Below, one piece after another: positions 5,321 through 60,963 of a DNA stretch of 64,000 bases; positions within the stretch are counted from its first letter, which is position 1, and every line of letters begins with the position of its first letter. The notes beneath the pieces were generated by a model. That model was not told where the DNA came from. It did no database searches and was given only the letters and a program-made list of their open reading frames with translations. The stretch is taken from contig CAJQUW010008619.1 of NCBI GenBank assembly GCA_907163375.1, positions 1-64,000 on the forward strand. Direction: 5' to 3'. The DNA comes from Prostheceraeus crozeri (Eukaryota > Platyhelminthes > Polycladida > Euryleptidae). The position numbers and the translations under genes are program-made.

Positions 5321-5768
5321 AGTTATAGGATACCTATGCGAAAGTAAACTTTTCGGCTGGATTGTTTACATTCTGAAGAAACTGTTGAAATTTGGTTATT
5401 TGGTTAAAACATCGCAGATTTAGAATTCAGATAAGGGCGAGTCCCAATTCTTTTTCAACTTCATTCAATTCAAAAATGAAGTCAAAAATCCTGTGGGTAT
5501 CCGAATTGCAGAGAACATTATGCAACGCATTGATCAGGTGATGACTGGCTGAATGGATGTTTAAACTGACTTTTTCAATCGATTTGAAGCCGGTCAGTGT
5601 TCTTTTTCCAGCCAAAGAGTTCGGTAGGCTGCACAATAAATTTTACTTTCACTTCGCTAGATTTTCCAGAAAAACGTAGGTTAAATGACATCTTTCAATA
5701 GTAAAAAAATGAATACAATTCCCCAGTTACATAGTTGACCGGTCGTCGGGAGATCAATTTGTCATCAC
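5321..5768. other. Intergenic, nothing recognised
   Basis: A minus-strand frame at 5427-5636 has no recognisable domain. No RNA gene or repeat is seen. Confidence 0.45.
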
Positions 5769-5975
5769 AAGATAGAAAAAAATCCCAAAGTTTTGGTCGA
5801 TACTTTCTTAAGTTAAAAAGGAAAAGTGAAAAATCTGACGGGCCTTCGGCGCACAGCGCCTTCAGATCATCGACCGTTTGAAGGCGCTGTGGGCCGAAGG
5901 CCCGTCAGACTTTTCACTTTTCCTTTTTAACTTAAGAAAGCATCGACGAAAACTTTGGGGAGTTTTCTCTACCTT
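5769..5975. repeat. Foldback element with about 96-bp arms
   Basis: Arms 5769-5864 and 5879-5975 are reverse complements with a few mismatches and small indels, separated by a 14-base loop. The inner arm ends are GC-rich (TGACGGGCCTTCGGC paired with GCCGAAGGCCCGTCA), then TTAAAAAGGAAAAGTGAAAA-like sequence, then CCAAAGTTTT outermost. A transcript would form a long hairpin. It resembles a foldback MITE. I see no clear target duplication and no coding potential. Confidence 0.8.
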
Positions 5976-7778
5976 CTGAATTCCCCGGTTGATTGATTTT
6001 CAGTGAATTTAACTGAAGTTGCAGCTATTATATCAGACTGTATGTTTTTTGAACAAGTTACGTACTATTCTATCTTCCTTGTTTAGTATTCATACAATAT
6101 TTATTTCACCATCGTCTCCACCTTTATGTTTTTGTTTTATCACGAGTTATTATTGATATCGAATCATGCGGAAAAACTCATTCCATTTGATCACTCATTT
6201 CCTTAAATACACGGAATCAGATGAAGTACATCTAGAAGTGAAACTATTTTTGGAGCATTAAAGTACAAGAAGATAAATTCATTAGCATCCTGAATTTATT
6301 TATATCCTTCTATTTTGACGATAGAACTACATGAGAAATAAGTACCGCATATGGAGGCAGCTGGTAGTTGACCAAACGACGGTAGATCATGTTCATACTG
6401 ATAATCAAAGGCACGAAGATAACTCTCTTTTATCTTAAAGTCGAATTTCTTTAGATTTGATAAGTACAAAGACTGAGGCAGATGGATTGAGGAGTTATTC
6501 GAAATAGAGAATCGACATTAGAAGAACCGATCTCTATGATAAAGGCATTGATCGCACGAGTGCTGCAAATTTGATGATTCAAATATTAGAATTCCTGACT
6601 AGCCGAAAATTAGGCTCGATGTCTTGGACAAATTATTTCCAATCTAAAATTAATTCCGACTTTTGCACGTTCAATGGAATTTAATGTATTTTATGTAATT
6701 TCATCGGTGAATAAAAGAAATCCGATAAAGTACTTAGACTTAAACAAATATATTTGTTGCACTTAAGTACAATGAGATGAATTCTAAGATGTCCTTGAAT
6801 TTGTTTACATATTCCAACTGCAAGATAAAGTCATCATGACTGGAAGAAGATTCTCTGACCTACGCGACTGATCTGAACGGAAGATGAACTTCTCTAGATA
6901 GTCAAGGAAACACGACTGGGCATTATGCATCGCAAGGAATGCAATGACTCTCCGAGGGTGGTATTTCAGTGAATGAAAAGGGCTCCGTACAAACAATTTG
7001 CATTTTTGGATGTAATATTCGGCTGGTTTATTTGCTAAAGTTCGTATACCTGAGCAAGGCTAGGACAAAACAGAATATCAAAAGTTCATCTCTATAACTT
7101 AGTTACTGTTGGTTAAAAAGTTCAAATATTGTTTTTGTTCAATGTTTACACGTGTAAATAAAATGTAAAACTGAAAGATACCCTAGTTAGACGGTCTCCA
7201 AGAGTAGTAGCTAATCGGCTCAAAATAAAGCGATTTAATCCAAAAATGATAATTAACATTCGACGCCAGTTGGTTGTATCAACCATGAAATACCTGATTA
7301 CATTAATACGACCACTTTATCCTACCAGACGTGCTATAAATTGCTAAAATTCGCTATAAATAGACATTTCTATATAAGCCTGCCAATCATAATCTCATCC
7401 GATTTTGTGATTGGACTTGTCAGCTCCTGTCAAGTGCTTCAAAGACGCATTGAACTTTACCTGCAAACAACTTACATAAGAGCATCTTTGACTTGCTTTG
7501 GTAAAAGATATATATTATCAATTGACAAACATTTTCCAATGTATTTCTAAATACATATGAACACATGTAGCTTCAATCTGCAAATTAGAAGTCATTTATC
7601 AGGCTTCTGGTAGCCGCAGCTGTTCCTGCAACGTACTAATTTTTATAACAATTGGCAGTAATTTCTGCCATGTTTGAAAATTTTTGTATAGAATTCACAA
7701 TACAAAAAACGGCAAAGCATCAGCATATTTCAAGCTAGAGACGGTTAATATTTCTGTTGGCCAATCCTGGATGATGTT
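5976..7778. other. Intergenic with a diverged 125-bp duplication
   Basis: Segment 6207-6335 and segment 6718-6842 are diverged direct copies. Both carry GATAAAGTAC or GATGAAGTAC, then AAGTACAA-GA-GAT-AATTC, then CCT-GAATTT-TTTA in the same order. The rest shows no gene; the ORFs at 6805-6996 (minus) and 7341-7550 (plus) match nothing I recognise. Confidence 0.4.
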
Positions 7779-8347
7779 AATTATATGAAATATTGCCACT
7801 GGCTTTCTCAGGAATTATGAGCGAGACTTTTTACTTAACGTTTCGAGATTCTTTAACGAGAGTGACAAAATGTCATTTATTATGCATAGCAGTTAAACAA
7901 AATTTCAAAATGATGAACATGAGAATATAGACATAGAAAACTGCGATAAAGAAATATGCACAAAATCATCTATCATGGAATACAGTATGTACAAGGTTAA
8001 TCAAAGCAATCTAATCAAAGGGAAATGTATGGAAACCGTAAAAAAATCGACTACCAAATGATACATTACACAACACGGAAAGCAAACGGTTCTCAAGTAA
8101 GCTATAATAAAAAGGGTAGTAAAACTTCACCAACATATATAGTAAGTGGATGTGTAGCTTTGATTAACCTTGTATACACTGTATTCCATGATAGATGATC
8201 TTGTGCATATTTATAGATCGTAATTTTCTATTTCTATATTCTCATGTCAATAAATGATATTTGTCACTCTTTAAAGAATCTCGAAGCCTTAAGTAAAAAA
8301 TCTCGCTCTTAATTCCTGAGAAAGCCAGTGGCAATATTTTATATATT
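7779..8347. repeat. Diverged long inverted repeat (foldback element)
   Basis: Arms 7779-8007 and 8157-8347 are reverse complements. The outer blocks carry AAATATTGCCACTGGCTTTC and TCAGGAATTA-GAGCGAGA, the inner ones ATCTATCATGGAATACAGT and ACAAGGTTAATCAAAGC. The left arm has an extra block of about 40 bases after CATTTATT. The unpaired centre is about 150 bases. The arms have many substitutions, so this copy is older than the one at 31580. No protein is encoded. Confidence 0.8.
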
Positions 8348-9030
8348 TCAAGCTGACCGCTTTCAATTCATGACAAAGTTTTGAGGTTCACATTGAAACA
8401 AAGTGAATACAAATTCCTTAGTTATCACTAGAAGCTCAAAATCCTGACTTTCGGTGATGTTCAGACTAACAACATCACAAATTAGACGTTGTGGAACTGT
8501 GTAGTATCAGGCGACCCGACAACAAAGTTGTAACCGGTATACCATCACTGGACTGTTATTACAAACTGCACCACTCGTTCCTATAAGCTCGCTGTTCCAG
8601 TGAATGAAAAGTTAAGCGTCCCCCTAAAAATCCACTGTGCTGGAGCATAATTCTGAGGATGCTAAAGGAAGGCCCACCATGTGAATGTTGCTGCCAAGAT
8701 AATGCATGTCGAAGTGAAATATTCTAGCATGAAATGAAGAAAAGATAAACCCTTAAAGGCGAATTACGTTGAGCGGTATAAAATTGCCAACTCCGTTTGA
8801 CTTGAACCCCATCGCGCTCGGACCAGTTTTCTTTTGAATTTCCCTTTCAGCCCCACATGCATACCCCTCGTTTAATAAAACTCTCTTCATAGGCCCTAAT
8901 GTGATATTGTCAAAGAAATTTGTGCCATTTACGTGAAGCTACTCCCGAAATCATTCTTGTACGTAAGTGCTACTTGTCGACTAGGAGCTGTACTAACACC
9001 TGAAAGTATTCAAGCAGATCTACAAGTAGG
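8348..9030. other. Intergenic, nothing recognised
   Basis: No supported gene or repeat. AAGTAGG just before 9031 is part of the target duplication of the next element. Confidence 0.45.
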
Positions 9031-13663: not shown

Positions 13664-13705
13664 GGACGCGTATATTTTGACAGGCACAGACCCTTCGCCT
13701 TTGGC

Positions 13706-14788
13706 TTGGATTTTGGTCATCAAATTAGGTTTCCTAAATGCAAGTGTGCAAAAGCAGATGCAATCTCGTCGGAAACCAGAGAAGGCTTGCCTTGGGAAGT
13801 TCTCTTTGCTGACGACTTGGTGATCATGGCAAGGAGCGAGGCGGAACTCATGGAGAAAGTTGTGAAGTGGAAGACATGTTTGGAGGCGAAGGGTCTGAAG
13901 GTGAACAGCGAAAAGACGAAGATGATGATATCTTCAGATGGAGCAGGCAATACAGATCGATCGGGAATCTATCCATGTGGTGTGTGTAACAAAGGAGTTG
14001 GTGCAAATTCCATAAGATGCACGGACTGCGGTAGGTGGATACACAAGAGATGTAGTGGCGTGAAAGGACGCATAACATCAGCTACCGCAAGGGGATTTGC
14101 ATGCAAAGGATGTAAAGGTGACATATCATCAGCAACGAAGATGGGTGACGGAATAGAAGTGGATGTGGCAGGGCAGCGTTACGAAGTGGTGAACAGGTTC
14201 TGCTATCTTGGGGACATGTTGGATGGCGGCGGTGGTGCGGATGCAGCTGTGTCTACGCGCATACGTTGTGGCTGGAAGCGATTCCACGAGCTGTTACCAT
14301 TCCTGGCTTCAAGAGGGACACCTCTCTGGATGAAGGGGAAGGTTTACGAAGCCTGTGTGAGGAGCAGAATGTTGTACGGCAGTGAGACATGGGCCATGAA
14401 GACAGAAAACAAAATGAAGATGGTAAGAGCCGAAAGAAGAATGGTCAGGTGGCTTTGTGGTGTTTCCATTCGAGATCGAATCTACAGCGAAGAGCTCCTC
14501 CAAAGGCTTGACTTGGTTGGAGTAGAAGAAGCCATGAGAAGAAGGCGACTGCGATGGTATGGCCATGTAGTTCGGAAGCCAGATGAAGATTGGGTAAAGA
14601 AGGTGTGGAAGATCGAAATACCAGGACGGAACATCAGAGGTCGACCTCGTACCACCTGGGAAGAAACTGTTCTTGGGGATTGCAGGAGATTGGGTCTCTG
14701 CGAGGATCTCTGCAAGGATCGTGGAAGATGGAGAACTGCCATCAGAGGAAACCGTCCAACCCAGCCAACGGCGGAAAAGGGACGTTAA
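13706..14788 (+). CDS. LINE reverse transcriptase C-terminal part with internal Cys/His finger
   Basis: This is the longest coding-like frame in the window (360 codons), with no internal stop. Residues 34-37 are FADD, the catalytic palm box of reverse transcriptase, followed by KGLKVNSEKTKMM (about 62-74). A cysteine/histidine finger follows (Cys 91, 94, 105, 108, His 113, Cys 116, 133, 136). Then come the thumb-like CYLGDML, GWKRF, ACVRSRMLYGSETWA and RLRWYGHV blocks, and a basic end. The same order occurs in LINEs of many invertebrates. The endonuclease and the fingers of the polymerase are missing. The reported start is a TTG; the true protein start lies far upstream in full-length elements. 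It is a truncated but young-looking fragment and not a host gene. Confidence 0.85.
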   Translation: MDFGHQIRFPKCKCAKADAISSETREGLPWEVLFADDLVIMARSEAELMEKVVKWKTCLEAKGLKVNSEKTKMMISSDGAGNTDRSGIYPCGVCNKGVGANSIRCTDCGRWIHKRCSGVKGRITSATARGFACKGCKGDISSATKMGDGIEVDVAGQRYEVVNRFCYLGDMLDGGGGADAAVSTRIRCGWKRFHELLPFLASRGTPLWMKGKVYEACVRSRMLYGSETWAMKTENKMKMVRAERRMVRWLCGVSIRDRIYSEELLQRLDLVGVEEAMRRRRLRWYGHVVRKPDEDWVKKVWKIEIPGRNIRGRPRTTWEETVLGDCRRLGLCEDLCKDRGRWRTAIRGNRPTQPTAEKGR

Positions 14789-28420: not shown

Positions 28421-30166
28421 ACAAACGGAAAATGGAATACTCTATCGAGAATTTAGTCCTCGTTACGACTCTGCATCTAGAGATATCAATGATATACGAA
28501 CATCCAACAGTCCCATCATGGACTCACATTCGGAAAATATTTATGCAGCTATCAGTCATCCATTCAAAGAAACATTCGAATTGGATTCGTAACGCTTTTG
28601 ATGCTCTGGTTCGTGACGCTTTTAATACTCAAACATGCACAACAGTGTCACCAGCAGTAACTGCAGTTGAAACAATAGCAGCAATGCTTCCTGCGTCGAT
28701 TTGAGCTGATAATCGTTACGCACCAACGTCGTACTGTCCATTGGTCTATTAGTGACATTGTCTCGTCGCATAGCGTTGGTCAGTCAATGTGTGTCTGCAA
28801 GAGCTTTCATTAATGAGAGAGCGCTGCAGGCGACCGCGCTTGGCTGTGAGACAGTAATGTGTAATTCATGCTCTGTCAGTCGCGACACTGCTACAAACAT
28901 TGATCGATTAAATGTCAGTAGACAAAATGCGGGTGGATTGTACATCACATGACGTACGCTGTTGCTGCAATTCCCTGTACTGCCCCTCTAAGGATCATGA
29001 AAAGGTGCGGTACAATATAATCAGGTCAGCAGTATTCACGAAAGATGACATACTGCATCCAACAATCAGACAATGGATCGCTTTATTTGTTGTGACGATA
29101 GAAGAGAATTGTTTTGAAAATAAGATTTCATTGGCAAGAAAAAGACATGACAGTTTGAAAGCTCAGTACAGAAAGTGTGCGATGTCATTGAAAATTTGAC
29201 CGCCTCCAAGATTCAAATCAAAATGTCTGGAAAATTGAAATGAACAAAACTCATGAATTCTACATCACATCCTACAGCAGCGTCCCGCAAACGCGAGACA
29301 TGTCATCCCAATTATTAAACCTCGATCGTCCTAGCTAAAAGTGAAATGCGTAGTAACTGGGGTACTTATGGGCTATCTCCTCAGGTTTTCAAATTTGTCT
29401 CAAATCTGCAAATGTAAATCAATCATCACCAAACTTCAGGTAGACGTACTTAAGTATATTTTCCACCCACATACAAAAATTTATGCAGATCGAACCAGCA
29501 CTTTTTACATTATAAATGATAGCGTGAAGTGTAGCAATGTCAACAGCCTGATCTGACTTCTTCTGCTCGACGCTTCATTGTTACTCGCGTTTGCATTGTT
29601 TTCGCTGCCTCTTCGTCTAACCCACTGCTATTTCAGATCTTCCCACAACCACTACCTTGCCACATCCTTTTAATGTTAGTCTAGGAGATGTGGCCTGGCC
29701 ATCATCATTTCACGAGTTGTCGGGAAATGACTTTGTTGACTTCAAGTGCTTTCTGCAGAGACGATGAGGTTAGAAGAAGTCAGATCAACATCGTTTCACT
29801 TCAAGTTATCGCCCCTAATTCAAAAGCTGTTTGTCCGATTTGCACAAATTTATACATGTGGGTAGAAAATATCCGCACTATGTGCCTAAAGTTTTGTGAC
29901 GATTGATTCATTTCTACGGATTTTAGACAAATTTGAAAACATGGGGGAGGGGGAGATAACCCATAAGTGCCGTAACTGGCATAATAGGCAACATCGGATA
30001 TAAACATTATTGGACTTCAATATTTTGAACCTATTTGATACAATAACACAACGTAAAAACGTAAATAAAGTTGTGAATATATTGCAAGTGTGAGTTTCTT
30101 GGTCCATTTCTTTAAACTACTCTTACAACTATTCGACTGCTTAGTCAAAAATATTTCATATTTCAT
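28421..30166. other. Intergenic, nothing firm
   Basis: Several short frames (28384-28704, 28752-28952, 28912-29199, 29341-29556, 29688-29906) are unrecognised. No RNA gene or repeat is supported. Confidence 0.4.
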
Positions 30167-30221: not shown

Positions 30222-30429
30222 AGTTTATAATCAAATAATACGAATGCAATACCTTACGTAAGTGTGAAAAATTAAAAATCACAACATTCTTTCAGTTACA
30301 AAGCTGACTGACTTTTAATTTCAAAACATCTTATTGCCCCTTTGTTATTTCATCGAGCGCATTTCAGTCACTGACCGGTACCTTTTGAATGCACATAATT
30401 TCTGTGTAGAAATAACAATTTGTAGACTG

Positions 30430-31203
30430 TAAACTTCAAAAGTTTATATTTCGTGTTCTCGCCTTCTTTTCTCAGACATTCGAAGACATGAGTTAGGAAG
30501 CCTTCGACTAACGATTTGAGATTCGACGGTTCGAAGAATCCCACTCATCTTTCACTCTCGCAAAAAGCTGATTTCTGTTTCTCGGTCGCGGATACTTGAA
30601 CACAGAATCCTGAAGAATCGACCGAATGTGTTCAATGACGCTTTATGTCCACTGAATTTCCAGGCCAGTCTTTCCAAACAGCAAGTCCAACATCGTCCAA
30701 AACAGTGAGGATTCCTTCGCTCTATGTACTCGCGCACCATCCTGCATAAGAACTGCTTTCTACGTATACGGGACGATTAGACGATCATGTATTTAATCGA
30801 AGTAGACAGGCAAGATTTTGTCCCTGTAGTAGTCACCAGTCACCGATCCTCCGTTTTCGACCACATGAAGATCCGCATTACCGTATCGAGTGATACCGCC
30901 AGCGACCATAACTTTCAAAGGAAGCTTTGGTATTGGGAGTACACGAGGTGTGCTTGCTGGTGAACTGGCTCGAATTCGGAAGTTTTGCTTGTTTGGCTTT
31001 GAAATCAGTTCCATTACACCTTCGTCTGTCCACAAAACATGGGAACAAGTATTCACGACCGAGAAACAGAGAACAGCTTAAAAATGAGTGAATTTCTTTG
31101 GAACCGTCCTATCTCAAATCATTGGTCGAAAGCCTTCTAACTCGTGTCTTGGAATGTCTGAGAAATGAAGGTAAGAACACGAAATATAAACTTTTGATGT
31201 TTA
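30430..31203 (-). mobile_element. Tc1/mariner-like element with about 110-bp TIRs, internally deleted
   Basis: The left end (about 30432-30542: TCAAAAGTTTATATTTCGTG, TCTCAGACATTC, GATTTGAGAT, GACGGTTC) is repeated inverted at about 31092-31201. The outermost bases are TA on both sides (30430-30431 and 31202-31203), fitting a TA target duplication. Between the TIRs lies only the C-terminal part of a DDE/D transposase on the minus strand. Long TIRs of this size occur in some Tc1/mariner families. Confidence 0.8.
30543..31091 (-). pseudogene. Mariner-like transposase remnant
   Basis: Reading the minus strand from about 31056: VLWTDEGVMELISKPNKQNF (first catalytic Asp in WTDE), then RASSP, PKLPLKVMVAGGITRYG, LHVVENGGSVTGDYYRDKIL, PVYFD. 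The frame then shifts, continuing with MQDGARVHRAKE (second catalytic Asp) and, in yet another frame, IEHIRSILQDSVFKYP (third acidic residue). The helix-turn-helix DNA-binding half that should precede WTDE is missing; the right TIR begins almost at once. Stops and frame changes make it inactive. The order of blocks is typical of Tc1/mariner cut-and-paste transposases. Confidence 0.8.
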
Positions 31204-31579
31204 AAATTTACATATTGCAATTTTTACACACAAAGTATGTGCATTCATGGATACTAAATAGATTTTTATCCGACGAATATCTGTTTTTACTTAAAGGCTT
31301 TAGGGGGTCAGAAGCATTTGGTCCACCATGTATTTCTCAGTTACTAGATTATTTCCTTGATGACGGTCAGAAAGGCCTTGAGCATGATTTCACTATAAGT
31401 TAATTATGAAAAGTGGTTGCTTCGTTTTATTATTTACCACAAAAATCAATAGCGAGCTTCCTACTGAAAAATGGTTATTGATTTTGTAATGAATTCATCG
31501 CATCTGAACTATGTCCTTGAATTGATTACTAAATTGAGTTCTCAGGTATTTTGTTACACAAAATTTTAAAATATCGTTC

Positions 31580-32327
31580 TAGTCCGGGAGCCAGCGTGAA
31601 GTTGTGCAGGGAACGAGGTAGTACGCAAAACTTTCACATAGCATAGTACACCTCTAACCTACTGCAAAACTTCGCGTCTGCCGGATCAGATCATTTGCTT
31701 TTCAGAAATAGAGAGGATAACACAATCCTATGTATTTCCAGTGGTAAAATTGTGACATTTAAGGTGTTGACTCCATTTTTTCGAATTTTTGCTCATAAAA
31801 GTTACATAAATTGGTATTTTGTTGAACTGGTTATTATAGAAATCATCTACAGATCATGATCTTTCTAATGAGTTATCATTCAGTGACAGAGGATGAAGTA
31901 AAGTGTACAAACAGACACTTTTCGTTGGTGTAACTGTAAATTTTAACATAGAAATTTCAGGAAAATTGTTGATATACTTTAACGAAAAGTGTCTGTTTGT
32001 ACACTTTACTTCATCCTCTGTCACTGAATAATAACTCATTTGAAAGATCATGATCTGTAGATGATTTCTATAATAACCAGTTCAACAAAATACCAATTTA
32101 TGTAACTTTTATGAGCAAAAATTCGAAAAAATGGAGTCAACACCTTAAATGTCACAATTTTACCACTGGAAATACATAGGATTGTGTTATCCTCTCTATT
32201 TCTGAAAAGCAAATGATCTGATCCGGCAGACGCGAAGTTTTGCAGTAGGTTAGAGGTGTACTATGCTATGTGAAAGTTTTATGTACTACCTCGTTCCCTG
32301 CACAACTTCACGCTGGCTCCCGGACTA
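31580..32327. repeat. Large foldback: 347-bp arms, 54-bp spacer
   Basis: 31580-31926 and 31981-32327 are reverse complements along their whole length, with four mismatches that I can find (two at about 31625, one each at about 31866 and 31876). The ends read TAGTCCGGGAGCC and GGCTCCCGGACTA, so a TA duplication is possible; alternatively TTC precedes and follows the element. Within each arm the outer segment and an inner one (GATCCGGCAGACGCGAAGTT-type) are again inverted relative to each other, giving nested repeats. No protein is encoded. It fits a non-autonomous foldback DNA transposon. Confidence 0.9.
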
Positions 32328-32492
32328 TTCCCCTTCCTTTAGCAGAATTTACATTGTTTAAAAAAATGTACACACGGGTCGAGCGGTTTCAGCACTCAGT
32401 GCTATTATTAAGACCCAACTTAAAGTAAAAGCTTGCAATGGCTCAAGACATGCACTTAAACACGGTGACAAAATCACTCAAAAAGTGACAAG

Positions 32493-32588
32493 AAGTGACA
32501 AGAAGCAACTTACATGAGAACTGTTAACCAAGTTCTTGTTAACATAAACTTGGTTAACAGTTCTCATGTAAGTTGCTTCTTGTCACTT
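32493..32588. repeat. Perfect hairpin with 42-bp arms
   Basis: 32493-32534 and 32547-32588 are exact reverse complements (arm begins AAGTGACAAGAAGCAACTTA and ends GTTAACCAAGTT). The 12-base spacer CTTGTTAACATA itself contains GTTAAC. Just left of it GTGACAAGAA is duplicated. Confidence 0.9.
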
Positions 32589-32640
32589 TCCTGACGATGA
32601 TCGTGTAGAACGGTCGAAAGATCTCGACAATAAACGATCG
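32589..32640 (+). other. Possible Penelope-like 3' segment beside the hairpin
   Basis: CTGACGATGATCG, then CGGTCGAAAGATC and TCGACAATAAACGATCG form a small stem (GATCG/CGGTC) followed by a CAATAAACG motif, similar in layout to the segment on the minus strand at 15661-15745. No coding sequence accompanies it. Tentative. Confidence 0.3.
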
Positions 32641-33899
32641 AGAAAAAAAACGAACATCTGTTTTGCGGACTCCCTAGAAATTATTGCAATGAATAAGGAT
32701 CCGTTATTTCAAACAACAAGTGAATTAATTAACAACATACCGTTTCTCACAAGAATGATCATTATTCAAAGAGTTACAGATTTCACAGCTACAGTTAATA
32801 GAAGAATGTAAAGAACTGAACTTATTGAAAGTGCTATTTATTTGTTTCCTGGTTTTGAACTCTTCTTAAGGACACGACATATTACAGTTGAGTTGTCTGA
32901 CTTCAGATAATGCCTGAAGGATGGTATCATGCTCTATACCTTAACAGAACCACACCTTTGCTATCCATTATTCCTGGAGGGACACTGACACTGTCTAGGA
33001 TTAGATAATACTGAATGTGATTATTTCCAATTCATTCTTTGAAATGAAAATATTCGCATATAATTTCGTGTCAGCACTTCTGGACATTTTCGGCATTGTA
33101 ACACTACGCTAAGTTTGAGGTACTATTTGTTTTCAGCCTACTGCTTATGAGGTCATAAATCTGATTTCACCATCAAAATATTCTCATATTCTTATCCTCT
33201 TCAAGCATATAATGTAATATCATTCATTGAATAAAAATTCGCTCGAGTTTTCTCTTATTTGTGTATTTATGCGAAAAATTATGAAGTTAAGGTAAAAGCA
33301 TGTGTACAATTCAATGTTTCGGAAATTCACCCGTCCTCAAGGGCATCAATATCAGTATCAGCTGTAAAAGTGACACAAATGAAGATTTGTTGCCTGACTG
33401 CGGATAATGTGAACAAGATTCAAAAAATCAATTTGTTCATTCTTGCGATCGATTTGTGGAGACCGTAAGTGTCTTCAGTCTTTGTGTTACATTTATCGGT
33501 AATGACATTGAGGGCGGGTGAGTACCCGAATCCGTTGGGTTGCACAAATGCTTTTACCACAACTAGTTGATTCGACGCATAGAAATTCAAAGGAAAATTC
33601 AATGAACTCTAGCGAATTTGTATTCAAGAAATAATGACTTACAACCTGTTCAGCGCGATGCTTCTTACGGTGTAACAGCATGGTGCTGAACGGTTTTCAT
33701 AGTCATCACAAAAATACAATGACTTTTGTACATGCTATGATTAACGACATCAATGTTATGGTTCCTGTCTCCCTCGGACTCTTCCTTATTTCACCAGCGA
33801 ACTGCTTCATGCATTGAGGAGGTATGTGACATTTAACTGTATCTGAACTCTTCCAAAGCGGAAATCATGTGGTTCCTTCAACTTCCTTCTGCTCCTCTT
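32641..33899. other. Intergenic, nothing firm
   Basis: Frames at 33259-33468 (plus) and 33493-33681 (minus) are unrecognised. On the minus strand MLLHRKKHRAEQ runs into GTTGTAAGT (about 33636), a donor-like site, which is the only hint of an exon. Confidence 0.35.
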
Positions 33900-35845: not shown

Positions 35846-36834
35846 TGATTGGGACGCTTGGTTCATTATAACAATAATCAGGGCTCTCTTTACCAAATTT
35901 TTTAACTCCAATTACAATTTCATTTATTTGTAAACAGAACCAAAGCGCATGAAACGGAAATTTTGAATTTCCAATACAGGCGGTTGGTACAGTAAGTGTA
36001 CAAAGCGCCCTTATCGAAAGTATTTTTTGTTCTGATTACAAACTCATTATTCAGTAATGAACACAATGGATCTGGTACACTTCTTCGACACGGACACTTC
36101 TTCGACAAGACATTTGTTCGACACGGACACTTCTTCGACAAGTTCTGCATGAATAATGCTTTATCTAGCATGAATAGTTCTGCATGAATAGAATTTTAGG
36201 TACTGGCTATCTTTCGTCTTTATGGTAATATCTTAAATTACAAATACGCTTCTAGTTCAATCTATGCGATGCAAGAATTATATTTTTTTAGAAAGGAAAA
36301 AAATTAATTTAAGACAAAAAGTATAAAAAAAATGCAAATTCTCAAAAATACACAACCTGAAAAAGAAAAAGACTATAATTGCTTAATAACGAACAAACGT
36401 CGTGTCGAAGAAGTGTTCGAAAATTTGTCGAAGAAGTGTCTGTGTCGAACAAGTGTTCGTGTACCAACACAATATAATAATGAACGCAATAAAATTCGAA
36501 TATATTTAAATTTTCAATTAGGGCGCTTGGGGAACCAAGTGCCCTTATTAAACTGATCTGAACAGCTACAACATATAGAATATTCTATCTTAGGATGTTC
36601 TACAAATATTATATATTTTTTCAATCATGTCGATAAAACAGCGTTACACAGATAATCAATACATATTGTAGGTATAAATAAAGGACAACTAGCCCTACCT
36701 ATACAAGTAATATGGAGTTTCAATTCATCATAGATATCAAATGAAGATGTGAGGGCGCTACGTACAATATCGACTCCCATTGGAGGGCATCTTGTACAAA
36801 TCGCCTCCTATTCACGCCATAGTACCAAGCACCC
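35846..36834. repeat. AT-rich composite with inverted CACTTCTTCGACA motifs
   Basis: 36074-36142 carries repeated GGACACTTCTTCGACA and ATTTGTTCGACAC words, and 36399-36465 carries them inverted (TGTCGAAGAAGTGTC, GAACAAGTGTTCG). A second motif, (A/G)GGGCGCTTGG, appears in both orientations near 35849, 36001, 36521-36546, 36752 and 36828, the outermost copies facing inward. This suggests a non-autonomous element of about 1 kb with iterated internal binding-site-like motifs. Minus-strand translation gives a repeated KKCPCR, which I take as incidental. Confidence 0.45.
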
Positions 36835-45300: not shown

Positions 45301-45684
45301 GAGAACGTTCAGTAGACACACAAACAGACAACAACCGATCAACTTCGGGTTTGAGATAACAAATGTGTGGGAACTTCAGCGCCACTTTGATACGAGGCGC
45401 CAGTTAGGGAAGAGAGAGAAGAACGGTTTCCGGGGTTCAACTCAAGATACAAACAATCTCAAAACGGTCGACTCAACACGACCGCATCGGCAGTGACTGA
45501 AATTAATGCAGATTTATTAACTCATCCGATCATCTCTACTGGATCGAATTAATACGTATTAAGAGTGCACGCGGATCAAATCGTTTTCATAATTATTGCA
45601 TGCTTTGCCTGTTGAGATTATCAGAGGTTAGACAGAAAAATGGGACAGAATTAGCAACTGGAGTTTAATTAGACATTCAATTCA
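39309..45684. other. Long stretch without recognisable genes
   Basis: 6.4 kb with only short, unrecognised frames. Small features: an AATATGCGT/ACGCATATT hairpin at about 43850-43880, an AT-rich run of TAAGTAATATA words at about 44270-44330, and GTGCCACTGATGATGG...GACTGAAACATG at about 42629, perhaps a decayed Penelope-type end. A similar GATGTGCCACTGACATGAAAC lies at 63973. Confidence 0.4.
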
Positions 45685-46944
45685 TTGTCACAACTCGATG
45701 TCAGCAATCAACTCATCGTCACAACTCGATGTCAGCAACCAACTCATTGTCACAACTCGATGTCAGCAATCAACTCATCGTCACAACTCGATGTCAGCAA
45801 CCAACTCATTGTCACAACTCGATGTCAGCAATCAACTCATTGTACACAACTCGATGTAAGGAATCAACTCATTATCATAACTCGATGTCAGCAATCAGCT
45901 CATTGTCACAGCTCGATGTCAGCAATCAACTCATTGTACACAACTCGATGTCAGCAATCAACTCATTGTACACAACTCGATGTCAGCAATCAACTCATCG
46001 TCACAACTCGATGTCAGCAACCAACTCATTGTCACAACTCGATGTCAGGAATCAACTCATTATCATAACTCGATGTCAGCAATCAGCTCATTGTCACAAC
46101 TCGATGTCAGCAATCAACTCATCGTCACAACTCGATGTCAGCAATCAACTCATCGTCACAACTCGATGTCAGCAACCAACTCATTGTCACAACTCGATGT
46201 CAGCAACCAACTCATTATCACAACTCGATGTCAGCAATCTTCTCATTGTCACAACTCCATGTCAGCAATCAACTCATCGTCACAACTCGATGTCAGCAAC
46301 CAACTCATTGTCACAACTCGATGTCAGCGATCTTCTCATTGTCACAACTCCATGTCAGCAATCAACTCATCGTCACAGCTCGATGTCAGCAACCAACTCA
46401 TTGTCACAACTTGATGTCAGCAATCAACTCATCGTCACAGCTCGATGTCAGCAACCAACTCATTGTCACAACTCGATGTCAGCAATCAACTCATCGTCAC
46501 AACTCGATGTCAGCAATCAACTCATCGTCACAACTCGATGTCAGCAACCAACTCATTGTCACAACTCGATGTCAGCAACCAACTCATTATCACAACTCGA
46601 TGTCAGCAATCTTCTCATTGTCACAACTCCATGTCAGCAATCAACTCATCGTCACAGCTCGATGTCAGCAACCAACTCATCGTCACAACTCGATGTCAGC
46701 AATCAACTCATCGTCACAACTCGATGTCAGCAATCAACTCATCGTCACAACTCGATGTCAGCAACCAACTCATTGTCACAACTCGATGTCAGCAACCAAC
46801 TCATTATCACAACTCGATGTCAGCAATCTTCTCATTGTCACAACTTGATGTCAGCAATCAACTCATCGTCACAACTCGATGTCAGCAAACAACTCATTAT
46901 CACAACTCGATGTCAGCAATCAATTCACTGTCACAACTATCGGC
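45685..46944. repeat. 31-bp minisatellite, about 40 copies, with higher-order structure
   Basis: The unit is CTCGATGTCAGCAAT plus CAACTCATCGTCACAA, 31 bases. Copies differ at a few sites (AATC/AACC, ATCG/ATTG/ATTA, CAACTC/CTTCTC). A few early units are 32 bases (TGTACACAACTC). The unit has no stop codon in any plus-strand frame, so overlapping frames of up to 417 codons arise. These frames cannot be taken as genes: the period is not a multiple of three and all three frames are equally open. The order of variants shows a 7-unit (217-bp) higher-order period near the right end. Confidence 0.95.
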
Positions 46945-59314: not shown

Positions 59315-60963
59315 CAGATTGTTTCATAAAAAATGGATCACCCTTAAACATCGCCTTAACTTCAACTTTGTCTAACTCCGCCAAACTTGAACGAATTTCT
59401 CTGAAATTTGGAAGATATGTCAGTTGTGCTTACTAATATAATTGTTGGAAATTTTAAGCATGAATATTGAGTTGTTTTCCTGTTATAGATAAAAAAGTAG
59501 TAGATAATTTGATCTTCATTTAGCAATGTTACACAAAATCATACCTCACTCTTATAAAATTGCATTTGTTTCCTTTGTTATGTAATATGTTGTTCTCCAA
59601 GCCAAAAGCTATCAAGCAAAACAAAAATAAAGAAAATCGGTCAATCAGAGCCAGTATAGCACCATTATTCATCAAAAATAATGTAACTGCTACATGTGAT
59701 TAACTGGACTTCATGTTCCATAGCTTCCTGACTTCGTTGCGGTGGTGTTGGCAGCACTCCTGATTGCTTTCAGCTAGAAATCTATCTCTTACCGGTTGAA
59801 AACAATACAAAGCACAAATGAACAATAACGAGATCGCATTCACAAAAGGCAAAGTGTCAGCTTTGCTAGAACAAGGGTTTTCTTTGCGAGCTACAAGCAA
59901 GCGACTAAATGTCCCTTACACAAATGTGCATCGATGGCATAACAATGATTTTCGACTCTGTCGTAAAGAGGGCTCTGGCCGTCCACGCAAAACATCCAAA
60001 CGTAGAGACGGCCTAATTTTGAGATTTGTTAAAGTTGATCCAAGTCTCTCGTTAGCTGAGATGGCTGCACTAGACTCGTCTATTTCTAAGTCCACTATTC
60101 GTAGAAGACTTATTGAGTCGAATTTCAAGAACTGTAAGAGGCCCTCTCAGATCGAATTATCAGATCAGCATACAAAAAGACGTCTCAGATGGGCAATGAG
60201 TCATTGTCACTGGCGAAATCAATGGGATCGGGTTGTCTGGTCTGATGAGGCATCAGTCCGTCTGAAGGATAGTGATGGTCGATTGAGATTATGGATAAAA
60301 TCTGATCAGGAAATTCGAGACATTTGCATCGTCCCGGGTACAAGGTGGTGCGACTGTACTGATTTGGGCTGGCATTTGGACCAATGGCCGCTCTGAACTT
60401 CACATACAGCAAGGAACCATGAATTCTGAACGCTATGTGAATGTTTTACGAATGAACATTGGCCAAATGACAGATCAACTTGGTGATCCATCGACTTGGT
60501 TATTTATGGATGATAAGGCTACGTGTCACAGGAGTAGTCGAGTCAACTTATGCAAGTCTCAATTAGGGTTTAGGACATTATCCAGCTCGTTCTCCTGATC
60601 TGAATCCCATAGAAAGTGTATGGAGTATTCTAAAACGCAATGTTCGTCGTTCACTGCTACCTACAGATGGCGTATCACAACTTACGTCACTGTTAAAAAG
60701 AGAGTGGAGAAAGTTAGATCAGTCAAAAATCAACGATATCATCGAATCAATGCCCAGACGAATTGGTAGTGTCATTGACAATACGGGTAGGGCCACAAAA
60801 TATTAGCTTCTTAAGAACCGTTGCTGTATCATAGCTTATCAGATTATATAAGGACATTTAAATATATTAGGGACATGAAATAACATGAAAAATGCTTTCT
60901 GTGTCATACTTATGCTTTATTTAGTCAAATTTTGGGATGATCCACTTTTTATGAAACGGACTG
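59315..60963 (+). mobile_element. Full-length Tc1-family transposon
   Basis: The left end CAGATTGTTTCATAAAAAAT continues GGATCACCC. The reverse complement of the right end is CAGTCCGTTTCATAAAAAGT, then GGATCATCCC. Both are flanked by TA (59313-59314 and 60964-60965). The TIR is about 30 bp, the total length 1649 bp and one transposase gene lies in the middle, all usual for Tc1/mariner. Both ends survive, but the transposase is broken. Confidence 0.92.
59818..60806 (+). pseudogene. Tc1 transposase with two frameshifts
   Basis: The ATG at 59818 starts a typical Tc1 protein of about 330 codons: a helix-turn-helix (VSALLEQGFSLRATSKRLN), a GRPRK-type hook (GSGRPRKTS), a second DNA-binding domain, then WSDEAS with the first catalytic Asp (about 60240). 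The frame is lost between about 60340 and 60380. It continues in the +2 frame with STWLFMDDKATCHRSS (second Asp, 60509-60514) and is lost again near 60560. It ends in a third frame with SPDLNPIESVWSIL (catalytic Glu 60612-60614) and a stop at 60804-60806. The Asp-Glu distance is close to the 34 residues of the DD34E class. Two shifts make it inactive. Confidence 0.92.

What the first reader, a model, noticed from the sequence alone, without database searches (positions are those of the whole stretch)
31580..32327. Near-perfect 748-bp foldback with nested inverted repeats
Two 347-bp arms differ at only four sites by eye. Each arm also contains a diverged inverted pair of its own (outer GTCCGGGAGCCAGCGTGAAG against inner CCGGCAGACGCGAAGTTTTG), so the structure is an inverted repeat of inverted repeats. 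Long near-identical arms are unstable unless young or repaired against each other. A read-through transcript would be a double-stranded RNA over 340 bp long, a natural substrate for Dicer.
Basis: partly seen in the sequence, partly recalled or inferred. Interest (0 to 1): 0.7.

Follow-up and report, generated by a model that had tools for sequence, protein, structure and literature searches.

The report
Young high-copy foldback mobile element
The near-perfect palindrome is one copy of a recently spread, non-coding jumping DNA element that occurs many hundreds of times in this large genome, and its two mirror-image arms look as if they are kept alike by repeated short copying from one arm to the other.

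Summary
The 748-bp foldback is real: arms 31580-31926 and 31981-32327, 4 mismatches, 54-nt loop. It is one copy of a young, non-coding DNA transposon family (long-TIR MITE/foldback) in a 2.05-Gb genome. The exact 22-bp terminus occurs 1,376 times (reversed control 0). 48 distinct full copies lie on average 1.5% from their consensus; 42 of 48 have a 3-bp and 2 a 4-bp target-site duplication.

Arms of one copy resemble each other more than arms of different copies (mean 5.1 vs 8.8 differences; 0 of 100,000 permutations). Of 123 arm variants seen in a single sampled copy, 26 are on both its arms. One two-variant haplotype occurs exactly twice in the genome, on the two arms of one copy. So the arms convert each other, in patches. 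Double variants are depleted at both arm edges, which favours homology-dependent gene conversion over snap-back copying from the loop.

No transposase partner was found, so the superfamily stays open. The Dicer idea could not be tested. I call it a new member of a known kind; the arm-conversion record is its most interesting feature.

The parts
31577..31579 (.). left target-site duplication TTC
   Evidence: 42 of 48 full copies have a matching 3-bp pair, 2 a 4-bp pair
31580..31926 (+). left arm (terminal inverted repeat, 347 bp), starts TAGTCCGGGAGCC
31583..31624 (+). outer half of the nested inverted pair of the left arm
   Evidence: arm positions 4-45; fold
31646..31685 (-). inner half of the nested inverted pair of the left arm
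   Evidence: arm positions about 67-106
31807..31807 (+). variant T (element position 228), present on both arms of this copy (mirror site 32100)
   Evidence: genome-wide 54 arms in 47 copies, 7 copies on both arms
31927..31980 (.). 54-nt loop
31981..32327 (-). right arm (347 bp), ends GGCTCCCGGACTA
32222..32261 (+). inner half of the nested inverted pair of the right arm
   Evidence: mirror coordinates
32283..32324 (-). outer half of the nested inverted pair of the right arm
   Evidence: mirror coordinates
32328..32330 (.). right target-site duplication TTC

Best explanation
A 748-bp non-autonomous cut-and-paste-type DNA transposon with very long terminal inverted repeats (a MITE/foldback), moved in trans by an unidentified transposase and recently amplified to at least several hundred copies. 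Shown: defined ends, 3-bp (rarely 4-bp) target-site duplications, high copy number, low divergence, and sharing of private variants between the two arms of the same copy. Inferred: the arms are homogenised by short-tract, homology-dependent gene conversion between the arms of one locus (same molecule, sister or homologue). The need for homology on both sides of a tract would explain why sites near the terminus and near the loop are rarely converted. Also inferred: conversion weakens once arms have diverged by some 10-20%, and breaks near the palindrome tip leave one-armed remnants.
For: 1,376 exact 22-bp termini, reversed control 0. 48 distinct full copies: 42 with 3-bp TSD, 2 with 4-bp, 3 without, 1 not assessed because its end is altered. 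Divergence from consensus mean 1.5%, range 0.7-2.9%. Arm differences within copies mean 5.1, between copies 8.8; 0 of 100,000 permutations as low, lowest 7.6; 34 of 96 arms have their own partner as nearest or co-nearest arm (14 of them tied), chance about 1 in 95. Variants found in one sampled copy: 26 on both arms, 97 on one. Variants in two or more copies: 107 copy-occurrences on both arms against 47.7 expected if arms were independent. Whole-genome exact counts: the L036 haplotype 2 places, the two arms of one copy; the L067 haplotype 6 places, three copies, both arms each; the L053 variant 11 places, 4 copies on both arms and 3 on one; the window's 228T 54 places, 7 copies on both arms and 40 on one, about 1.1 doubles expected for 688 copies. 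All 19 copies with a private double also keep arm differences that are old polymorphisms, bounding tracts at 75-334 bp. Doubles lie farther from the nearest arm edge than singles, 118.7 vs 65.1 bp, 0 of 100,000 permutations.
Against: No transposase or autonomous element was found. The 48 copies are not a random sample (best matches, or contigs listed first), and the four haplotypes tested genome-wide were picked because they were double in the sample; leaving out the picked copy, 11 further copies carry them on both arms and 43 on one. The exact mid-arm interval 76-275 was chosen after seeing the data. GC bias, a frequent mark of gene conversion, is not clear: doubles 12 AT>GC to 7 GC>AT, singles 35 to 35. 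Assembly or polishing artefact cannot be fully excluded without reads.
Confidence: 0.85

Rival explanations
1. The arms are renewed wholesale by snap-back (hairpin-primed) synthesis or by mismatch repair of an extruded hairpin, both starting at the loop.
For: Such structures are plausible for a 347-bp-arm palindrome (general knowledge); arms of young copies are nearly identical.
Against: Loop-proximal sites should be the most homogenised; private doubles at arm positions 301-347 are 0 of 26 against 19 of 97 singles, p 0.012. All 19 copies with private doubles keep old arm differences, so whole-arm renewal is not the last event in any of them.
Confidence: 0.1
2. Arm homogenisation is an artefact of assembly or short-read polishing, which writes one arm's bases onto the other.
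For: Identical inverted arms are hard to polish (general knowledge); no reads are available here.
Against: The assembly keeps arm differences freely: every one of the 33 copies has at least one, and 40 of 47 copies with 228T have it on one arm only. The L067 haplotype is on both arms at three separate loci and nowhere on one arm.
Confidence: 0.08
3. A host-useful inverted repeat transcribed into a long hairpin RNA for RNA interference, with arm identity kept by selection.
For: Arms would pair almost perfectly in a read-through transcript.
Against: Hundreds of dispersed copies with TSDs behave like a transposon; two diverged relatives have arms only 80-82% alike; no expression data.
Confidence: 0.04

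Closest known systems
Galileo (Drosophila, foldback-like; PMC2775673, passages seen)
   Same: Long TIRs; its Table 2 shows TIRs of one copy far closer (e.g. 0.0018, 0.0071) than most TIRs of different copies.
   Different: No sequence relation was tested. Galileo is a P-superfamily element (the PMC4079207 passages list Marzo et al. 2008 among exceptions to Mutator; the superfamily and 7-bp TSD are recalled). The element here has 3-bp TSDs and only a 54-nt loop.
Tetris/DAIBAM foldback elements of Drosophila virilis (PMC4079207, passages seen)
   Same: Non-coding, long TIRs, autonomous partner not found; the authors also mention homogenisation by unequal crossing over or gene conversion for repeats inside the TIRs.
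   Different: TSDs of 8-10 bp and tandem repeats inside the TIRs; here 3-4 bp and no tandem array in the arms (one search lists none there).
KolobokP (PMC9587614, abstract and passages seen)
   Same: A terminal block that carries short inverted repeats of its own; 3-4 bp TSDs for some families.
   Different: KolobokP blocks are direct repeats of about 450 or 660 bp and termini are 5'-RR..YY-3'; here blocks are inverted and termini are TA..TA.
AcademX transposons (one passage in PMC10045372)
   Same: 3 or 4 bp TSDs, as found here.
   Different: No Academ protein or terminal sequence could be compared; the main Academ paper is not held.
Palindromes of mammalian sex chromosomes (PMC8981503, passages seen)
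   Same: Arms kept alike by arm-to-arm gene conversion.
   Different: Megabase-scale, few, gene-bearing, GC-biased; here hundreds of small mobile copies and no clear GC bias.

Membership tests
MITE / non-autonomous TIR DNA transposon | terminal inverted repeats with fixed ends | tested here: met
   ends TAG...CTA in the copies listed
MITE / non-autonomous TIR DNA transposon | target-site duplication of fixed length | tested here: met
   3 bp in 42 and 4 bp in 2 of 48
MITE / non-autonomous TIR DNA transposon | high copy number, homogeneous length, no coding capacity | tested here: met
   1,376 exact termini; most of the 34 copies are 748 bp; no ORF of 80 aa or more lies in 31580-32327
MITE / non-autonomous TIR DNA transposon | autonomous partner with the same ends | tested here: inconclusive
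   not found; searches partial
Foldback element (structural class) | TIRs make up nearly the whole element | tested here: met
   694 of 748 bp
Foldback element (structural class) | arrays of subrepeats inside the TIRs, as in Tetris | tested here: not met
   no tandem repeat reported at 31580-32327
AcademX | 3 or 4 bp TSD (PMC10045372 passage) | tested here: met
   not specific to Academ
AcademX | related transposase/nuclease element with these ends | tested here: inconclusive
   4 XPG_I matches in the genome; one of the four fetched and it looks like EXO1 by eye (recalled), not a transposon; the other three not examined
PIF/Harbinger | 3-bp TSD, typically TWA (recalled) | tested here: inconclusive
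   length fits, but among the 42 3-bp TSDs only 7 are TTA or TAA; others include TAT, GTA, TTC, CAT, CCA
PIF/Harbinger | DDE_Tnp_4 transposase inside an element with these ends | tested here: inconclusive
   150 of 5,513 candidates scored, all matching; their loci could not be cut out. One neighbour (L059) seen, without these termini beyond the MITE itself
Zator | ISAzo13-type transposase (PF07592) in the genome | tested here: inconclusive
   no match, but the family rang in none of the 14 control genomes
Kolobok | TTAA target, termini 5'-RR..YY-3' (PMC9587614 passages) | tested here: not met
   termini TA..TA and varied 3-bp targets
Hairpin-RNA (Dicer substrate) locus | transcript and phased small RNAs | not testable with these tools
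   no RNA data

The most novel reading that the evidence does not exclude
Each dispersed copy is a small natural recorder of recombination. After insertion, private mutations are copied between the inverted arms in patches that need homology on both sides and stop with divergence, while breaks near the palindrome tip leave one-armed remnants. If so, one MITE family gives a genome-wide readout of both palindrome gene conversion and palindrome breakage in the same genome.
Probability: 0.4. Interest if true: 0.5.

Novelty: new member of a known kind. Interest (0 to 1): 0.4.

Why it matters
Long inverted repeats are expected to be unstable. A family of several hundred near-identical, dated copies in independent places lets one measure how often the two arms exchange sequence, how long the tracts are, and how the structure is lost. 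It also warns that arm-to-arm divergence of a foldback element cannot be used as an insertion clock.

Tried and rejected
Autonomous partner: (1) 20 stretches around termini listed were fetched and gave mostly the same 748-bp element, diverged or broken copies, and none with an internal gene linked to these ends by the searches made; I did not scan all of their ORFs for transposases. (2) A diverged copy as DNA query (40 of 503 candidates scored) returned more elements of the same kind; matches that stopped at query position 620 looked like a one-ended subfamily, but the six such places that I fetched were ordinary full elements with shortened alignments: rejected. (3) XPG_I, DDE_Tnp_4 and PF07592 searches did not settle the superfamily. 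(4) A DDE_Tnp_4 match 1.2 kb from a copy (C9128) was looked at through L059: no such terminus apart from the MITE's own.

TA as a 2-bp TSD (Tc1/mariner type) was my first thought; the flanks show that TA belongs to the element and the duplication is NNN.

Wholly in-situ origin of the window's 228T double variant: rejected, since six other copies also have it on both arms and 40 on one.

One-armed remnants: ten partial copies were listed by eye, with kept lengths 395, 403, 413, 419, 565 (loci) and 434, 413, 434, 678, about 210 (loci); 7 of 10 end at 395-434, just past the loop. The binomial value 9e-6 uses an interval chosen after seeing the data and, for the first five, copies selected for a whole arm, so it overstates the case. 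One of the seven (L024) still has 24 bp of the other end and is an internal deletion. Three interrupted or internally changed copies (L031, L032, L033) were left out.

Rfam found only two tRNAs in the window. Plasmid collection: no match, uninformative for such an element. Literature: searches were listings; passages were read of PMC4455052, PMC4079207, PMC9587614, PMC10045372, PMC2775673 and PMC8981503; PMC7165386 is not held. I make no claim that arm conversion in MITEs is unpublished.

Full report
Observation. The foldback is exactly as described: two 347-bp arms, 31580-31926 and 31981-32327, with 54 nt between them and four mismatched pairs. Each arm contains a diverged inverted pair of its own near its outer end. 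The right end is the last A of GGACTA at 32327.

What it is. The window lies in a genome of 2.05 Gb in 14,165 contigs; that it is a eukaryote is inferred from size and from the retrotransposon and Tc3-like fragments in the window. Searching with one arm gave 63 matches from the 40 scored of 487 candidates. The exact 22-bp terminus is present 700 times forward and 676 times reverse, and the reversed control pattern 0 times. Since 57 of 96 termini in my sample carry the exact 22-mer (not a random sample), the family probably has about a thousand copies; this is a rough estimate.

Ends. Among 34 copies, 30 have a perfect 3-bp duplication directly outside TAG...CTA and 2 a 4-bp one. Among 48 distinct copies it is 42 and 2, with 3 lacking one and 1 not assessed because its end is altered. 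In the window the duplication is TTC/TTC. The targets are AT-rich but varied. This is the signature of cut-and-paste transposition with fixed ends. No ORF of 80 aa or more lies inside the element, so it is non-autonomous. Divergence from consensus is 1.5% on average, range 0.7-2.9%, so it is young; the sample favours close copies.

Rows dropped before the counts: seven loci flagged as the same or flank-sharing places (L008, L015, L016, L020, L048, L064, L065), copies less than 90% identical, and partial copies.

Do the arms repair each other? If arms mutated independently, the two arms of one copy should be no more alike than arms of different copies. They are: 5.1 against 8.8 differences per 347 bp, with 0 of 100,000 permutations as low (33 copies gave the same answer). 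Of variants seen in one sampled copy, 26 are on both arms and 97 on one. These 26 are spread over 19 copies.

Whole-genome counts are free of the sampling limit. I took four variants that were double in a sampled copy. The two-variant haplotype of L036 occurs at 2 places, the two arms of that copy and nowhere else. That of L067 occurs at 6 places, three copies with both arms each. The L053 variant is at 11 places: 4 copies on both arms, 3 on one. The window's 228T is at 54 places: 7 copies on both arms, 40 on one, against about one double expected for 688 copies. Because the variants were picked as doubles, the fair remainder is 11 further copies double and 43 single.

How. Every one of the 19 copies with a private double also keeps at least one arm difference shared with other copies, so the exchange is patchy, with tract upper bounds from 75 to 334 bp. 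Doubles are concentrated away from both arm edges: mean distance to the nearest edge 118.7 bp against 65.1 for singles, 0 of 100,000 permutations; 0 of 26 doubles but 19 of 97 singles lie in the 47 bp next to the loop, p 0.012. Copying that starts at the loop predicts the reverse. I therefore favour homology-dependent gene conversion between arms of one locus; which molecule is the donor (same chromatid, sister, homologue) is not shown. GC bias is not evident (12:7 against 35:35).

In this window copy, two of its four arm differences (element positions 46, 47) are old polymorphisms of the family and two (287, 298) are on one arm of this copy only within the sample.

Older relatives. L044 and L050 have arms 82.3% and 80.3% identical to each other, and 85.3-90.8% identical to the consensus arm (a shuffled arm scores 74.7% with this gap-tolerant aligner). 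They look like copies whose arms have drifted apart, with L050 still flanked by TGA/TGA. Two copies are too few for more.

One-armed remnants. Seven of ten partial copies stop just beyond the loop (lengths 395-434). This suggests breakage near the tip of the palindrome, but the sample is small, partly selected, and the interval was chosen afterwards.

Superfamily. 3-4 bp TSDs fit AcademX (one passage in PMC10045372), and 3 bp fits Harbinger (recalled) and Zator (same paper). None could be tied to these ends: XPG_I gave 4 matches, of which the one examined looks like EXO1 (by eye); DDE_Tnp_4 gave 150 matches out of 5,513 candidates, whose flanks could not be fetched; PF07592 rang in no control. 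Kolobok is contradicted by the termini. The superfamily is therefore open.

RNA interference. Nothing here shows transcription or small RNAs.

Verdict. A real, young, high-copy foldback MITE: a new member of a known kind. The arm-to-arm conversion has precedent in Galileo, where TIRs of one copy are closer than those of different copies (PMC2775673, passage), and in sex-chromosome palindromes (PMC8981503, passages). The number of independent copies makes this family a good place to measure it.

Noticed in passing
32493-32588: A 96-bp palindrome (48-bp arms, 96%) 166 bp from the foldback. In the 40 of 90 candidates scored, only the window holds the whole; the other 39 places match its right part (32547-32600) at 100% and its left arm as the inverted copy of the same stretch, some in a 2,656-bp periodic array on contig C5313. 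It may be a new inverted duplication at a repeat end.
   Followed up: partly
5765-5979, 7779-8348, 29361-29971, 30386-31247, 33219-33635, 36077-36456: Six further inverted-repeat structures in the same window, more diverged; 29361-29971 is flanked by GTAACTGG on both sides, an 8-bp duplication.
   Followed up: partly
45677-46938: A 31-bp minisatellite of about 40 copies, 90% matches; because 31 is not a multiple of 3 its plus strand is almost free of stops in all three frames (3, 0 and 2 stops; minus strand 46-51).
   Followed up: partly
G000, genome-wide: DDE_Tnp_4 (Harbinger-type) transposases are very abundant: 5,513 first-look candidates, 150 of 150 scored match, several families with identical-length open frames; contig C10797 has five in a row about 3.2 kb apart.
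   Followed up: no
31580-32327, family: In 33 copies substitutions at CpG are 4 of 329 although 32 of 748 consensus positions are in CpG, so there is no sign of methylation-driven CpG decay.
   Followed up: no
L069 1410-3596: A 728-aa uninterrupted frame that looks like EXO1 (by eye; found through XPG_I), unusual in lacking introns over that length.
   Followed up: no
13664-14788 and 59800-60396: Fragments of a reverse transcriptase with a PHD finger in frame, and of a Tc3-like transposase.
   Followed up: no
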